Shown here: positions 16,828-28,849 of the stretch, in pieces
Numbering within the stretch: the first letter of the stretch is position 1
Layout of the letters: the number at the start of each line of letters is the position of its first letter
Origin: a virus
IMG/VR virus record: IMGVR_UViG_3300037258_000366
Span: 1-55,252 of that record
DNA: 55,252 nt
Direction: 5' to 3' (one strand)
Program-made: the position numbers and the translations under genes
Notes under the pieces: generated by a model
What the model was told of the DNA's origin: nothing
What the model saw: the letters and a program-made list of their open reading frames with translations, nothing else
Database searches by the model: none

Positions 16828-16901
16828 GTAGACCGAGGGAATTTTGAAATCCCGACTTCTGCTTTGTAGGAGCAGCGCTCTGCCTCTGAGCTACCGATCT
16901 A
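16828..16901 (-). tRNA. tRNA-Val(TAC), atypical
   Basis: Acceptor TAGATCG/CGGTCTA, D arm GCTC/GAGC, anticodon stem CTGCT/AGCAG and a GGGA/TCCC T stem around TTCAAAA. The anticodon loop CCTACAA gives TAC, but position 33 is C instead of the near-universal T, so the identity is provisional. Its first three bases are the stop codon of the LAGLIDADG gene upstream. Confidence 0.65.
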
Positions 16902-17240
16902 TAGTGGCAAATATAGCCTGCCAGAGATGTTAAGCAAATTTGACACGTTTTCTTTTTTGACGATTAAAAGATCCTCTACAGAAGACAGAAAGAATCTTGC
17001 TTGTCTGTATGCAAAGACAAGATAGTGATTTATGCCATGATCTGCTACTTGTGGTTTAGCATAAATTTTTCCAAATCCGTAGAGTTCCTGTATCCAGACT
17101 AGCGGCTTAGTGTCGTTCTGATATATTTTAGCCGACAGTCTAGGATATCTTATTCCATTAGACGCTTTGACGTTGCTTAGATATGCACTTCCTTCACCAT
17201 CAAAAAATCCTGCTATATATGCAAGTTCTGTGTCGTTCAT
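16899..17240 (-). CDS. LAGLIDADG homing endonuclease (free-standing)
   Basis: 113 residues, a single-motif member: YIAGFFDGEGSAY at residues 8-20 is the LAGLIDADG helix with the catalytic acidic residue, followed by the alpha/beta region (SAKIYQNDTKPLVWIQELYGFG). Single-motif enzymes act as homodimers and cut long DNA sites, spreading their own gene. It lies between tRNA-Val and tRNA-Glu at the 3' end of the array and has a weak ribosome site. No intron is evident, so it is probably an intergenic homing gene. Confidence 0.85.
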   Translation of the reverse strand: MNDTELAYIAGFFDGEGSAYLSNVKASNGIRYPRLSAKIYQNDTKPLVWIQELYGFGKIYAKPQVADHGINHYLVFAYRQARFFLSSVEDLLIVKKENVSNLLNISGRLYLPL

Positions 17241-20160: not shown

Positions 20161-21750
20161 CTAGTCTTCCCAGGGCCAGCGAGCCTCTCTGCCGCGCTCT
20201 ATCAGCGGAATCATGCTGAATGTCGCATCGGACAAACCGCCCAGTTCATGCCTTGTCCCGACACCCGAAGGCATCATCGACTTGGAATAACCGCCAAGAT
20301 TGAATCCGTATAGATAAGTGTTCTTAGGAACAACATTATCTACTGATCCATGCCAGTCAAAGAAAGCCTGGCCATCTGTGAAAATAACTACCCTCTTTGC
20401 ATCCGCTCCAAGAGTACGACGCACTGAAGCTACTGTCTGAGTACCGTAGCCAACTTCACCATTTCTGCTGTAGAAGTGTGCTACTGCCTTAAGGACAGAA
20501 GAACCAGTTGGTATTACATACTCAAATACACCGTCAGCGTACCCGAACAATCTCACTCTTCCCTGATTCTTCCTGGCAAGAGCTACACCGAACAATCCGG
20601 CAGCCTCATGACAAGCCAGTTTGCTCTTGTCAGAAACGCGAGACTGCATGGAACCAGAAGTATCCACATAAATATAGGTTATTCCTGGCAACTCTGGGAT
20701 ATTCTGGGTTGAGTAATCAAGCGCCTTCTCCAGAGCCTTGCCGTAGTTAAGGCTGTTCAGTTCCTTGTAGGCAGAAACAAACCTGAAAGGGAACTGTCTT
20801 GACTTAGCCACGATCTCCGGGTTGGACAGCTTCTCGCAAACAGCCTCAACTGAAGCGTCAGAAATTCCCGCCTCATCGAAGTTACGAAGGTTTCTCAGAG
20901 TAGCCATATACCCCATTGAAGGTATCATAGCTTCCCATAGATCATCCTTAGGAACTCTTGATCCTGCCAGGGAAAGAGCATCTTCCCATGTCATTCCTGC
21001 TGCCTTCAGGTTCTCTGCGTCCAGAAGAGCCTCAGGATGATTTACTGCCTTCAGGCGAAGACCTTCATTAGCAGAAATCATAGGAAGCTGATGTCCAGAG
21101 CCTTCCCAGACATTATTGAATCTCCTGGCCTGAGAGAAACTGTAAACAGCAGCCTGATTCTCACCAACTGGTGATGCATGTACCATGTTCAGTACATCAG
21201 CGAATCTCCAGCCATGAGAAGCTGTGTCATACTTCAGCAGCGAATACTCGTTGTAGAGTCTTGCACATGCATCAGAAAGACCGCGCTTAACAGGCATTGG
21301 AAGAGGCTTGCCATACTTGGAAACCCAGTAAGCAAGAAACTCTCCTGGCTCATCCGCTCTCTGGCATACAGCCCTGATAAACTTCCTGTTCCATCCTTCG
21401 GTGCCCTGCATATTATCAGTCAGTCTTGCACGTACGGCAATTGCTGCTCCTGTGATAGAAGCAGTACGTATGTTTCCTGTACCACGCAGCCAGTTAAGGA
21501 ACCCAAGCATCCACTTAGGATCTTCTCTTGCTACAGCAGTAATCAGCTTCTCCCAGCGCACTTCTCTCTGGCTTGCTGACTCGTAGAAAGTCTGCTCACC
21601 GAAGAAATAGTTCACGCCCAGAAGGAATAGCTCGGACTTAGTCTCGCGGTCAAAAGCAATGCCACCCTCACAAGTGACTGAGCTTCCTGCTATTGACTTA
21701 ACTGGCGAGCGTCCTGCTGGTACTGTCCCTGGAGTGTTTAGCTTAGACAT
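20161..21750 (-). CDS. rsr: Ro60-like TROVE-domain RNA-binding protein
   Basis: 529 residues from the ATG at 21750 (AAGGAG 11 bases upstream; a GTG 9 bases earlier is too close to it). Residues about 20-350 form the TROVE HEAT-repeat ring (for example WEKLITAVAREDPKWMLGFL, then NWLRGTGNIRTASITGAAIA). A vWA domain follows with a complete MIDAS motif DTSGS at 363-367 and a later TDGQAFFD. Ro60 orthologs bind Y RNA on the outer ring and the 3' ends of misfolded RNA in the central hole; in bacteria they can tether PNPase and assist rRNA maturation and stress survival. The upstream leader carries a series of Y-like RNAs (see 21779-22713), strongly supporting this function. The gene lies at the end of the transcript starting at 22.9 kb. 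Confidence 0.93.
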   Translation of the reverse strand: MSKLNTPGTVPAGRSPVKSIAGSSVTCEGGIAFDRETKSELFLLGVNYFFGEQTFYESASQREVRWEKLITAVAREDPKWMLGFLNWLRGTGNIRTASITGAAIAVRARLTDNMQGTEGWNRKFIRAVCQRADEPGEFLAYWVSKYGKPLPMPVKRGLSDACARLYNEYSLLKYDTASHGWRFADVLNMVHASPVGENQAAVYSFSQARRFNNVWEGSGHQLPMISANEGLRLKAVNHPEALLDAENLKAAGMTWEDALSLAGSRVPKDDLWEAMIPSMGYMATLRNLRNFDEAGISDASVEAVCEKLSNPEIVAKSRQFPFRFVSAYKELNSLNYGKALEKALDYSTQNIPELPGITYIYVDTSGSMQSRVSDKSKLACHEAAGLFGVALARKNQGRVRLFGYADGVFEYVIPTGSSVLKAVAHFYSRNGEVGYGTQTVASVRRTLGADAKRVVIFTDGQAFFDWHGSVDNVVPKNTYLYGFNLGGYSKSMMPSGVGTRHELGGLSDATFSMIPLIERGREARWPWED

Positions 21751-21778
21751 ATTATTCACATCTCCTTACATAGAAAAA

Positions 21779-21870
21779 CCGCCTGAGGATAAGTCGTAAG
21801 TCAGTGTTTTTATCTGAACTGTTATTTAATATAACTATTAGAAGTAACTGACTAACCTCGCATCAGGCGG
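21779..21870 (-). ncRNA. Y-RNA-like element E0 in the Ro leader
   Basis: 92 nt. Ends CCGCCTGA and TCAGGCGG pair perfectly and the 3' end is followed by TTTTT. It carries the family 5' signature GTCAGTTACTTC and 3' signature CTTATCCTC just inside the stem. No tRNA-like arms are evident; the middle is AU-rich (TAATAGTTATATTAAATAAC). It ends 29 bases before the Ro start codon, so it may work as a terminator or as an autoregulatory Ro-binding leader. Confidence 0.65.
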
Positions 21871-21882
21871 CGGTTAAAAATC

Positions 21883-21975
21883 ACCAGAGAACGAGGTGAG
21901 GACGGTTGGGGCCTTCTCGGACCCCTGATTGTGTTTCTTGGCGAGAAGAAGTATCCGTCACTCTTCACAACTGGT
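21883..21975 (-). ncRNA. Y-RNA-like element E1 with a possible pseudoknot
   Basis: 93 nt. Ends ACCAG/CTGGT pair (extended by AAAA/TTTT outside). 5' signature TGTGAAGAGTGACGGATACTTC (shared, split here as TGTGAAGAG and CGGATACTTC); 3' signature CGTTCTCTGG. Inside, TTCTCG pairs with CGAGAA while GGGG in its loop can pair with downstream CCCC, an H-type pseudoknot. No T or D arm is seen. Confidence 0.6.
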
Positions 21976-21994
21976 TTTAAGTATTAAGTTTTAC

Positions 21995-22134
21995 GATGCT
22001 AGAGAATAATTCGGAAGCAGAAATTTTAGCGCTCTGCCGTTGAGCTACATCCCGAAGAAGCCGGGATGATAGGAGTCGAACCTATAACCTCTCGTTCCAT
22101 AGACGAAGTAACTGATTCCTGCACATCTAGCATC
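21995..22134 (-). ncRNA. Y-RNA-like element E2 with full circularly permuted tRNA module
   Basis: 140 nt. The 9-base ends GATGCTAGA/TCTAGCATC pair perfectly; 5' signature TGTGCAGGAATCAGTTACTTC (shared part TGTGCAG and CAGTTACTTC), 3' signature CCGAATTATTCTC. Between them, in order: an anticodon arm TTCGT-CTATGGA-ACGAG, variable AGGTT, T arm ATAGG-TTCGACT-CCTAT, acceptor 3' strand CATCCCG, loop GCTTCTT, acceptor 5' strand CGGGATG, TA, and D arm GCTC-AACGGCA-GAGC. That is a tRNA opened at position 26 and closed at the acceptor. YrlA-type bacterial Y RNAs are known to mimic tRNA in this manner. Confidence 0.82.
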
Positions 22135-22145
22135 TTAAGTTTTTA

Positions 22146-22222
22146 AGGGCGCACTAAACCTTAGTGCTATACCGTCCGTTCCCAGGCAGCTATCAGGACT
22201 TGAACCTGAAATCTCCCTCGCT
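22146..22222 (-). ncRNA. Additional permuted tRNA-like module (unresolved)
   Basis: A good T arm (TCAGG-TTCAAGT-CCTGA) is followed by TAGCTGCC, a 7-base loop, GGACGGTA, TA and a D-arm-like hairpin GCAC-TAAGGTTTA-GTGC. The two 8-mers pair only with two single-base bulges. The order T arm, acceptor, D arm again is permuted. No conventional tRNA can be drawn. The Y 5' signature is missing, so it may be part of E3 or a degraded copy. Confidence 0.45.
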
Positions 22223-22225
22223 TGT

Positions 22226-22360
22226 GTACCAGAGAATCGTTTTGATCGCGGAGTTTGTATTCATAACCTCCGGGTTTTGAGCCCGGCGCTCTATTGTTGA
22301 GCTATAATCACTATTTTTGGTGTAATTAATGAAGTAACCGTGATCATTCACATCTAGTAC
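22226..22360 (-). ncRNA. Y-RNA-like element E3 with tRNA-like arms
   Basis: 135 nt. Ends GTACTAGA/TCTGGTAC pair with one G-U; 5' signature TGTGAATGATCACGGTTACTTC (shared part CGGTTACTTC), 3' signature CGATTCTC. Inside, TAATTAC pairs with GTGATTA across a loop that begins ACCA; then come TA, a D arm GCTC-AACAATA-GAGC, and an anticodon-type arm CCGGG-CTCAAAA-CCCGG (anticodon CAA). A canonical T arm is not visible. It cannot be folded as a linear tRNA because the 3' acceptor strand is upstream of the 5' one. Confidence 0.65.
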
Positions 22361-22363
22361 TAG

Positions 22364-22434
22364 AGGCACTTACTGGATTTGAACCAGCGTAAACGGTTTT
22401 GCAGACCGTCACCTTGCCACTCGGTCAAAGCGCC
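22364..22434 (-). tRNA. tRNA-Cys(GCA)
   Basis: Acceptor GGCGCTT/AAGTGCC, anticodon stem ACGGT/ACCGT with loop CTGCAAA, T arm CTGG-TTCAAAT-CCAG. It sits between Y-like elements E3 and E4, only 3 and 6 bases from them. Confidence 0.93.
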
Positions 22435-22440
22435 ATATTT

Positions 22441-22547
22441 GTACTTGAGAATAAGATGAACTCCGGAATAGTGTGCCTTTACAGCATCTATTTCTAGATG
22501 CCTTGGAATCGAACCAAGAAGTAACCGTTGTTCTTCACATCAAGTAC
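22441..22547 (-). ncRNA. Y-RNA-like element E4 with GAAA-capped acceptor
   Basis: 107 nt. Ends GTACTTGA/TCAAGTAC pair perfectly; 5' signature TGTGAAGAACAACGGTTACTTC (shared part CGGTTACTTC), 3' signature CTTATTCTC. The core is a minimal tRNA mimic in permuted order: T arm CTTGG-TTCGATT-CCAAG, then GCATCTA-GAAA-TAGATGC, a 7-bp acceptor stem closed by a GNRA tetraloop, then a short D-like arm TGT-AAAGGC-ACA. No anticodon arm. This is exactly the design expected for a YrlA-like Y RNA. Confidence 0.85.
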
Positions 22548-22550
22548 TAG

Positions 22551-22627
22551 TAGCGGTGGCCGGATTTGAACCGAGCGATCTCTTGCTTATGAGACAAGCG
22601 AGGACAACCGAACTCCTCTACACCGCA
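22551..22627 (-). tRNA. tRNA-fMet(CAT), initiator
   Basis: Acceptor TGCGGTG/CACCGCT leaves T1-T72 unpaired, the hallmark of an initiator. D arm GAGG/CCTC, anticodon stem CTTGT/GCAAG with loop CTCATAA, T arm CTCGG-TTCAAAT-CCGGC. The three G-C pairs usual in initiator anticodon stems are absent. No elongator tRNA-Met was found. Confidence 0.85.
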
Positions 22628-22637
22628 CCGAAAGGAT

Positions 22638-22713
22638 AGAGAGCTAGAGAATAATTCGGGAACGGTGTCTATTCGCTGTAAGAAGTATCCGTACCCTGCA
22701 CAACTAGCACTCT
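22638..22713 (-). ncRNA. Short Y-RNA-like element E5
   Basis: 76 nt. Ends AGAGTGCTAG/CTAGCTCTCT pair over 10 positions with one T-T mismatch; 5' signature TGTGCAGGGTACGGATACTTC (shared part CGGATACTTC), 3' signature CCGAATTATTCTC, identical to E2. The loop (about 25 nt) has no tRNA-like arms, so this is the minimal form of the family. It is the first of the series to be transcribed. Confidence 0.7.
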
Positions 22714-22747
22714 TTTTAAGGAGGAAAAATGATGCGCTTCCCTGATG

Positions 22748-22822
22748 TACCGCCTGCGGGAATCGAACCCGCGACAACCAGATTGAAAGTCTGGGCACCA
22801 ATACCATCATAGTAAAGGCGGC
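22748..22822 (-). tRNA. tRNA-Glu(TTC)
   Basis: Acceptor GCCGCCT/AGGCGGT, anticodon stem CCAGA/TCTGG with loop CTTTCAA, T arm GCGGG-TTCGATT-CCCGC. It opens the Ro/Y-RNA transcript. Confidence 0.92.
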
Positions 22823-22825
22823 ATG

Positions 22826-22879
22826 TTGCCGATGAGATTGGAGCAGACTGTGCATGCATATCGATTCCCTCACCGGCAA
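22826..22879 (-). ncRNA. 5' leader hairpin of the Ro/Y-RNA/tRNA operon
   Basis: TTGCCGGTGAG at 22879 pairs with CTCATCGGCAA at 22826 over 11 positions (one G-U). The 5' strand begins about 6 bases after the -10 box, so the transcript should start with this stem. Confidence 0.55.
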
Positions 22880-22884
22880 GTACT

Positions 22885-22913
22885 ACTGTACCACAAGGCC
22901 GACTCTGTGTCAA
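22885..22913 (-). promoter_or_regulatory. Promoter TTGACA-17-TACAGT for the Ro/Y-RNA operon
   Basis: Perfect -35, 17-base spacer, TACAGT -10. It drives leader stem, tRNA-Glu, E5, tRNA-fMet, E4, tRNA-Cys, E3, E2, E1, E0 and the Ro gene; no other promoter is visible in between. Confidence 0.88.
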
Positions 22914-22935: not shown

Positions 22936-23946
22936 CTAGCCCAGAACCAGAAGACGTGTGCCTTTTATAAGCTTGCGGTTAATACTAGTTGACTGCACGA
23001 AAATAGTGTAGTCTCTGTAGTCTTCTGGCTTAACATCAACCTTCTCATCAGGGAGACCGAGCAACTGCCTGGCATTTCCTGTGTATACTGTCCCAGTTGA
23101 GTTAACCATGATGGCTAGCTGCTTCTGCGGCTGAATTGTTTCCTTCTTCATTAGCTGATAATAGCCAGTTCCTACCTTGTAAGGCATTCCTAGCCTGTCT
23201 GTGAAGAAATCATCAATCCTTCCGTCTGCCATAACGTTCTGAAGCGAGTAAAGATAATTCGGCAGGGGTGTAAGACTGCCTATAATCTCTGAAACAGACA
23301 CTTTGCTGAGCTTGAACAGGCTTCTGGTGCCTCTTATACCCTTAGTTCTGTTGACCATGAAGGTTTCAGAGGTTCTTCTGATGGTTTCTCCTACTTCAGC
23401 GAGACCATCAGTAGCAGAAGTGTTCCATACTGCTATGTTTTCTGCGGGAAAACCGAACTTTTTGGCCTCATGAACCCCAATTTGGTCAGGAACAAAGCCT
23501 GCAAGGGTCCAGTGATCAGGCAAACCCGCAATTTCAGCCGCTAGCTTGCCTGGTTTGGCCCTGCTATCGTTTTCTTTGCCGTCCGTGAGCACATAAACGA
23601 GAAAGGAATGCTCCCCATACTTCTCTGGAGTCATCTTCAGGTCCGAAATAGCCAGTAAGGTAGCGTCTATGAGCGCTGTAGTGCCGTATGCTTTGTACAA
23701 TCCGGCAATGCTTGGCATTCTCAGAACGTCTTTGTCGTAAATCAGGCACTGGATATTGTCCGGGTAGTCAAATGTGTATACTGTTATCCGTGTTTCCTGA
23801 TCTAGCTCCTTAGATCTCTGTGCTAAGTACTTAATCTGATTGTCCGCCACCTTTACAACGTCATCGGTGCGGTAATACATGCTTCCTGAGCCGTCAAGAA
23901 CTAATACAATGTGATTAATGTAGTTCGGGATTGCCGTGCTTGTCAT
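22936..23946 (-). CDS. vWA-domain protein
   Basis: 336 residues. A von Willebrand A domain occupies about residues 10-200: LVLDGSGSM (MIDAS DxSxS at about 17-21), GTTALIDATL (the Thr of MIDAS motif 2) and YVLTDGKEND (motif 3 Asp). The C-terminal 130 residues are unassigned, with a possible second fold. vWA proteins bind divalent metal and partner proteins. It lies just upstream of the Ro operon promoter, giving two vWA proteins side by side, though transcribed separately. It overlaps the next small membrane gene by 4 bases, suggesting a membrane-linked complex. Function unknown. Confidence 0.85.
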   Translation of the reverse strand: MTSTAIPNYINHIVLVLDGSGSMYYRTDDVVKVADNQIKYLAQRSKELDQETRITVYTFDYPDNIQCLIYDKDVLRMPSIAGLYKAYGTTALIDATLLAISDLKMTPEKYGEHSFLVYVLTDGKENDSRAKPGKLAAEIAGLPDHWTLAGFVPDQIGVHEAKKFGFPAENIAVWNTSATDGLAEVGETIRRTSETFMVNRTKGIRGTRSLFKLSKVSVSEIIGSLTPLPNYLYSLQNVMADGRIDDFFTDRLGMPYKVGTGYYQLMKKETIQPQKQLAIMVNSTGTVYTGNARQLLGLPDEKVDVKPEDYRDYTIFVQSTSINRKLIKGTRLLVLG

Positions 23947-28756: not shown

Positions 28757-28775
28757 TTCTCCTCCTTAGTTGTGG

Positions 28776-28849
28776 TTGGCCGTGCTGGACTTGAACCAGC
28801 GATCTTTCGTTTATAAGACGCCTGCATTAACCAACTATGCTAACGGCCA
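28776..28849 (-). tRNA. tRNA-Ile(TAT)
   Basis: Acceptor TGGCCGT/ACGGCCA, anticodon loop CTTATAA with only three firm stem pairs (CGT/ACG), T arm GCTGG-TTCAAGT-CCAGC. Confidence 0.88.

What the first reader, a model, noticed from the sequence alone, without database searches (positions are those of the whole stretch)
22226..22360. E3: permuted tRNA-like RNA whose acceptor loop begins with ACCA and which has a CAA anticodon arm
TAATTAC pairs with GTGATTA through a loop ACCAAAAATA, so the base after the 3' acceptor strand is A followed by CCA, the standard mature tRNA end. No linear tRNA gene in the array that I checked encodes CCA. The D arm and an anticodon arm CCGGG-CTCAAAA-CCCGG follow in normal order, but I could not draw the T arm. 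Breakpoint therefore differs from E2, suggesting independent permutations.
Basis: seen in the sequence. Interest (0 to 1): 0.75.

Follow-up and report, generated by a model that had tools for sequence, protein, structure and literature searches.

The report
Phage Y RNA mimicking permuted tRNA
The "permuted tRNA" is one of six small RNAs (Y RNAs) that a phage encodes beside its own copy of the Ro60 protein; its outer stem should bind Ro60 and its inside imitates a rearranged transfer RNA, including the CCA that normally ends a tRNA.

Summary
The sequence described is real and not chance, but it lies on the minus strand and is most likely not a tRNA gene. It is one of six Y RNAs (22710-21779, minus strand) among tRNA genes, just upstream of a phage Ro60 (TROVE) gene at 21750-20161. 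The RNA is a Ro60-type stem carrying a tRNA mimic in permuted order: acceptor hairpin, D arm, anticodon-like arm. The "missing" T arm is where the Ro stem sits. The ACCA after the acceptor 3' strand looks conserved: N-CCA occupies that place in all nine relatives with the same arm order, found without using CCA as a criterion, but in only 5 of 72 Y RNAs of the commoner order. Phage Y RNAs with tRNA-like domains are known; this arm order, the anticodon arm and the conserved CCA make it a new variant. What the CCA does is untested.

The parts
22226..22360 (-). The finding: Y RNA copy R3, Ro stem plus permuted tRNA mimic
   Evidence: Top hit of the class III Y RNA model in the window, 22361-22225, 52.7 bits, E 8.2e-12; full-length though sub-threshold match to Rfam Deinococcus_Y_RNA, 23.2 bits; fold z -4.1
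22353..22360 (-). P1 5' strand GTACTAGA, pairs with 22233-22226 TCTGGTAC
22226..22233 (-). P1 3' strand TCTGGTAC
22338..22345 (-). P2 5' strand GATCACGG; with the following TTACTTC it forms the conserved core CGGTTACTTC (22340-22331)
   Evidence: pairs with 22251-22244; 4 double changes kept against L039; P2 covaries in 40 relatives
22244..22251 (-). P2 3' strand CCGCGATC
22329..22333 (-). inferred T-stem 3' strand TTCAT
   Evidence: pairs with ATGAA 22264-22260; 4 of 5 pairs kept in L039 through double changes; absent from the minimum-energy fold
22260..22264 (-). inferred T-stem 5' strand ATGAA
22322..22328 (-). acceptor 3' strand TAATTAC
   Evidence: 3 double changes against L039
22318..22321 (-). 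A-CCA at the start of the acceptor loop (loop 22321-22312)
   Evidence: N-CCA at the same place in all nine class III relatives
22305..22311 (-). acceptor 5' strand GTGATTA
22288..22302 (-). D arm GCTC-AACAATA-GAGC
22270..22286 (-). anticodon-like arm CCGGG-CTCAAAA-CCCGG (CAA)
   Evidence: 3 double changes against L039
22641..22710 (-). Y RNA copy R5 (no tRNA-like insert)
   Evidence: Ro-stem model, 40.5 bits, E 5e-7
22441..22547 (-). Y RNA copy R4 (T arm and acceptor hairpin inside)
   Evidence: Ro-stem model, 34.4 bits, E 1.2e-5
21995..22134 (-). Y RNA copy R2, class I (anticodon, T, acceptor, D)
   Evidence: YrlA 29.8 bits, E 3.5e-4; class III model 41.4 bits, E 7.2e-9
21881..21977 (-). Y RNA copy R1
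   Evidence: Ro-stem model, 30.0 bits, E 1.2e-4
21779..21870 (-). Y RNA copy R0; its P1 is followed by a run of T
   Evidence: Ro-stem model, 36.9 bits, E 3.3e-6
20161..21750 (-). Ro60 (TROVE) gene
   Evidence: Pfam PF05731 69.6 bits, cut-off 23; solved TROVE/RO60 chains E down to 4.6e-26; annotated Ro-like proteins of phages, about 42% identity

Best explanation
The element is a phage-encoded Y RNA. Its outer helices P1 and P2 and the conserved core are taken to bind the phage's own Ro60 (inferred from homology and gene order). The other end of the RNA is a tRNA mimic in permuted order: acceptor hairpin with A-CCA in its loop, D arm, anticodon-like arm, with the Ro stem attached in place of the T arm. 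It starts 2 nt after tRNA-Cys, so it would probably be transcribed with the tRNAs and released by tRNA-processing enzymes, bind Ro60, and show the tRNA-like face to a tRNA-binding host protein such as PNPase or a tRNA-processing or tRNA-modifying enzyme, changing which RNAs Ro60 or its partner handles. Shown by sequence: the fold, family membership, the neighbouring Ro60 gene, the arm order, and conservation of N-CCA. [quoted passage not shown]
For: Ro60/TROVE gene adjacent. Six copies of one stem motif in the window; motif 4 exact matches against 0.01 expected. Ro-stem model made without the window finds R5, R0, R4, R1 as the top four hits. Class III model made without the window finds R3 first, E 8e-12. 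Rfam Deinococcus Y RNA and YrlA align to R3 and R2, below cut-off. Same RNAs lie upstream of Ro60 in many phages and in actinobacterial chromosomes. Permuted helices covary in class III: 23 of 36 pairs with double changes, 100% of cells paired. N-CCA 10 of 10 (class III plus R3) against 5 of 72.
Against: No expression or binding data. Rfam scores are below the curated cut-offs (23.2 against 80; 29.8 against 69). R3 itself has only one close structural relative (L039), which lacks CCA. The T-stem is not in the minimum-energy fold. The class III model also scores class I Y RNAs at a similar level.
Confidence: 0.88

Rival explanations
1. A true circularly permuted tRNA-Leu(CAA) gene: the precursor is cut and re-ligated at the Ro-stem junction, the acceptor loop is removed, and a working tRNA results, as in red and green algae.
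For: 21 of 21 template pairs; ARAGORN calls the rotated sequence tRNA-Leu(caa) when a T loop is supplied.
Against: The T loop had to be supplied; D loop AACAATA lacks GG; a linear tRNA-Leu(CAA) exists; relatives have anticodon loops of 6 to 12 nt; flanks are a conserved Y RNA stem next to Ro60; no ligation junction is evident.
Confidence: 0.03
2. A linear tRNA with a large insertion in its variable region, using the T arm and acceptor half at 22225-22185.
For: cmscan 40.4 bits, above the cut-off of 29.
Against: Insert of over 50 nt; acceptor stem with a mismatch and several G-U pairs, against 7 of 7 pairs in the permuted hairpin; the insert is the 3' half of the Ro stem, which pairs upstream; in class III relatives the linear acceptor shows no double changes and 75% pairing.
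Confidence: 0.03
3. It is a Y RNA, but its job is to act as a decoy or inhibitor of tRNA-cutting host defences (anticodon nucleases) rather than as a Ro60 tether or gate. This is a rival on function only.
For: An intact anticodon-type arm in a tRNA-rich phage; the same idea has been raised for Salmonella YrlA (PMC7790460).
Against: The anticodon arm is variable or absent among the six copies, while the Ro stem is the part that is kept.
Confidence: 0.2
4. Degenerate tRNA debris with a chance resemblance.
For: An orphan tRNA 3' half follows directly at 22225-22185.
Against: Kept double changes against L039, full pairing against shuffles, and the conserved Ro-stem core.
Confidence: 0.02

Closest known systems
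Bacterial and phage YrlA Y RNAs (Rfam RF02553; Salmonella YrlA, PDB 6CU1)
   Same: Ro60-binding stem plus a tRNA-like domain, gene next to Ro60; T arm, acceptor and D arm in permuted order in R2 and the class I relatives
   Different: R3 has acceptor, D and anticodon arms with the Ro stem where the T arm should be, and CCA in the acceptor loop. The review read here lists only D, T and acceptor arms for YrlA (PMC8394870).
Deinococcus radiodurans Y RNA (Rfam RF01053)
   Same: Aligns to R3 from end to end; shares the core CACGGUUACUUC, and its consensus reads CuuC-UCCAAC
   Different: Score 23.2 against a cut-off of 80; its third arm has a T-type loop (UUCGAUU) where R3 has CUCAAAA
Circularly permuted tRNA genes of algae and archaea (review PMC3978253)
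   Same: Acceptor 3' strand, intervening loop, acceptor 5' strand order; breakpoints at various places in the cloverleaf; CCA encoded in two Thermofilum cases
   Different: Those are re-ligated into a working tRNA; here the junction is a Ro60-type stem and no T loop remains
Two-piece (permuted) tmRNA
   Same: tRNA domain encoded in permuted order; functions in two pieces (PMC3978253)
   Different: No tag-peptide part; loop removal here is only a proposal

Membership tests
Bacterial Y RNA | Encoded next to a Ro60/TROVE gene | tested here: met
   Gene at 21750-20161, PF05731 69.6 bits
Bacterial Y RNA | 5' and 3' ends pair into a long stem with the conserved Ro60-type motif | tested here: met
   P1 8 bp, P2 7 of 8 bp, core CGGTTACTTC; models from other phages
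Bacterial Y RNA | tRNA-like effector domain | tested here: met
Bacterial Y RNA | Binds Ro60 | not testable with these tools
   Needs purified protein
Rfam YrlA (RF02553) | Covariance-model score at the curated cut-off | tested here: not met
   R2 29.8 against 69; R3 has no match listed. Undoubted Y RNAs of other Ro60 phages also fail it
Rfam Deinococcus_Y_RNA (RF01053) | Covariance-model score at the curated cut-off | tested here: not met
   R3 23.2 against 80, full length
Circularly permuted tRNA gene | All tRNA elements present, T loop included | tested here: not met
   No local T arm; T loop had to be supplied for ARAGORN
Circularly permuted tRNA gene | Junction cut and re-ligated | not testable with these tools
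   Needs RNA sequencing
Linear tRNA | Contiguous cloverleaf with a sound acceptor stem | tested here: not met
   Score passes (40.4 against 29) only with an insert of over 50 nt and a weak acceptor

The most novel reading that the evidence does not exclude
Phage Y RNAs are modular: one permuted tRNA ring onto which the Ro60 stem is attached at different cloverleaf junctions, and in the acceptor-first forms such as R3 the conserved N-CCA lets RNase P and 3' trimming open the acceptor loop, giving a two-piece, CCA-ended tRNA mimic held together by the Ro60 stem.
Probability: 0.3. Interest if true: 0.8.

Novelty: new variant of a known kind. Interest (0 to 1): 0.55.

Why it matters
What the tRNA-like half of Y RNAs is for is still open. 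A set of natural Y RNAs that differ in where the Ro stem joins the tRNA body, and in whether CCA is kept, is a ready-made test of which tRNA face the Ro60 partner reads. It also explains some phage "tRNAs" and "permuted tRNAs" as Y RNAs.

Tried and rejected
Nucleotide similarity of 21700-22900 to phage records finds essentially tRNA matches only. At gathering level Rfam gives only tRNA hits in the window, so no intron, ribozyme or tmRNA family. Third arm read as a T arm (loop CTCAAAA, as the Deinococcus alignment puts it): considered, but the class III model aligns it to the anticodon arm, and the 1-nt linker and 5-nt variable region fit an anticodon arm. Chromosomal Ro60 loci were searched for the R3 arm order: none convincing in 179 elements. 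MAFFT misaligned R3 with L039, so pairs were compared element by element. A Ro-stem model could not bridge the long inserts of R2 and R3. The papers of Chen 2014, Wang 2018, and Sim and Wolin are not held, so prior description of this arm order could not be checked.

Full report
Observation. The bases named are present, on the minus strand, and fold as described: acceptor hairpin TAATTAC-ACCAAAAATA-GTGATTA, D arm, and arm CCGGG-CTCAAAA-CCCGG. The fold of 22360-22226 is much more stable than shuffles (z -4.1). Adding TTCAT/ATGAA as T-stem gives 21 of 21 tRNA pairs with canonical spacing (7-bp acceptor, 2 nt, 4-bp D, 1 nt, 5-bp anticodon, 5-nt variable, 5-bp T). None of 20,000 dinucleotide shuffles exceeds 17, and ARAGORN, once given a T loop, reads the rotated sequence as tRNA-Leu(caa). 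The T-stem is not in the minimum-energy fold, so I treat it as inferred.

What it is. The flanks of the element recur in six copies between 22710 and 21779, all on the minus strand: P1, a TG(T/C)G-type box, P2 ending in C(G/A)G(T/A)TACTTC, insert, P2', a TTATTCT-like box, P1'. The core motif occurs 4 times exactly where 0.01 is expected. The next gene downstream, 21750-20161, is a Ro60 protein: TROVE 69.6 bits, matching solved TROVE and RO60 structures and annotated Ro-like proteins of Streptomyces, Gordonia and Arthrobacter phages. Rfam aligns R3 to the Deinococcus Y RNA from end to end and R2 to YrlA, both below cut-off. So these are Y RNAs. The window is a 55,252-base IMG/VR virus record.

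Independent tests. From the Ro60 loci of other phages I collected Y RNA-like elements by motif and pairing. P1 and P2 covary in 40 simple copies (P1, and P2 in part, had been selected for pairing). A model of those 40, none from the window, finds R5, R0, R4 and R1 as its top four hits in 55 kb, E 5e-7 to 1e-4; the next hit has E 1.2. It does not bridge the long inserts of R2 and R3. A second model, from six Y RNAs of other phages with acceptor-first order, returns 22361-22225 as best hit in the window, 52.7 bits, E 8e-12, aligning acceptor hairpin, CCA, D arm and anticodon arm and leaving out the T arm. That model also scores the commoner class at similar levels, so the class assignment rests on the alignment, not on the score.

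Arm order. In these loci the tRNA ring (acceptor closed by a loop) carries the Ro stem at different junctions. Class I is the majority and the kind found on actinobacterial chromosomes: the stem lies between D and anticodon arms, giving anticodon, T, acceptor, D; R2 belongs here. Class III (L015, L018, L126, L129, L130, L031, L032, L133 and the truncated L030) has the stem between T arm and acceptor, giving acceptor, D, anticodon, T. R3 and L039:2769-2900 look like class III without a local T arm, with the stem in the place of the T loop. L087:3202-3340 and L081:3198-3337 have D, anticodon, T, acceptor, with the stem between acceptor and D (sequence and fold).

Permuted or linear. In six aligned class III Y RNAs every pair of the permuted structure forms and 23 of 36 pairs show double changes, 5 of 7 in the acceptor hairpin. 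The linear alternative acceptor forms in 75% of cells with no double change, although cmscan calls a linear tRNA inside several of them. R3 and L039 differ by kept double changes in P2 (4), T-stem (4), acceptor (3) and anticodon arm (3). The linear tRNA call over R3 (40.4 bits) needs an insert of over 50 nt and a poor acceptor stem.

CCA. N-CCA follows the acceptor 3' strand in all nine class III members and in R3; the searches that found them did not use CCA. In class I it is 5 of 72; Fisher p 1e-9, or 3e-7 for 7 of 7 when close relatives are merged and R3 is left out. Shared descent may inflate this, since CCAAC is common to several, but the acceptor stems differ. L039 lacks it. The linear tRNAs of the window almost never encode CCA (1 of 30).

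Function. Known Y RNAs bind Ro60 by the stem and offer the tRNA-like part to PNPase; tRNA-modifying enzymes also act on it (PMC8394870 and PMC7790460). I expect the same division of labour here. The Y RNAs sit tightly between tRNA genes (R3 begins 2 nt after tRNA-Cys), so tRNA processing could cut them free. The conserved N-CCA could serve RNase P recognition, because bacterial RNase P reads RCCA (own knowledge), and would open the loop as in permuted tmRNA; this is a proposal. A decoy role against anticodon nucleases is possible and has been suggested for YrlA (PMC7790460).

Known or new. Phage Y RNAs with tRNA-like domains have been reported (PMC7765460 citing Sim and Wolin 2018; from memory, Chen et al. 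2014 lists many bacteria and phages). I could not read those papers, so whether the acceptor-first order, the anticodon arms or the conserved CCA were noted there is open. On what I could read, it is a new variant of a known kind.

Noticed in passing
window 22225-22185 (-): An orphan tRNA 3' half (T arm CAGGTTCAAGTCCTG and ATAGCTGCC) follows R3 directly; it is what makes cmscan call a linear tRNA here.
   Followed up: partly
window 28773-28849 (-): tRNA-Ile(TAT) appears to be the only linear tRNA of the array with an encoded CCA.
   Followed up: yes
window 21870-21775 (-): Y RNA R0 has a G+C-rich P1 followed by a run of T, so it may double as an intrinsic terminator just before the Ro60 gene.
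   Followed up: no
L087:3202-3340 and L081:3198-3337: Y RNAs with order D, anticodon, T, acceptor hairpin: a further attachment point of the Ro stem.
   Followed up: partly
L008, L013, L022, L062 and many other class I Y RNAs: Class I Y RNAs often carry canonical anticodon loops of the form CTnnTAA, formed with the conserved CTTC of the Ro core.
   Followed up: partly
L022:5704-5775 (VanLee tRNA-Arg) and L026:5745-5835 (Frankenweenie tRNA-Pro): Annotated tRNAs just upstream of the phage Ro60 gene overlap Y RNAs and are probably misannotated.
   Followed up: partly
L133:5051-5192 (+): An acceptor-first Y RNA (86.7 bits, GCCA in the loop) on a 54-kb virus contig with no TROVE match; the contig may be incomplete.
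   Followed up: partly
window 22936-23946 (-): A von Willebrand A-like protein gene just upstream of the Y RNA cluster.
   Followed up: no
window 16899-17240 (-): A LAGLIDADG endonuclease-like ORF between tRNA genes.
   Followed up: no
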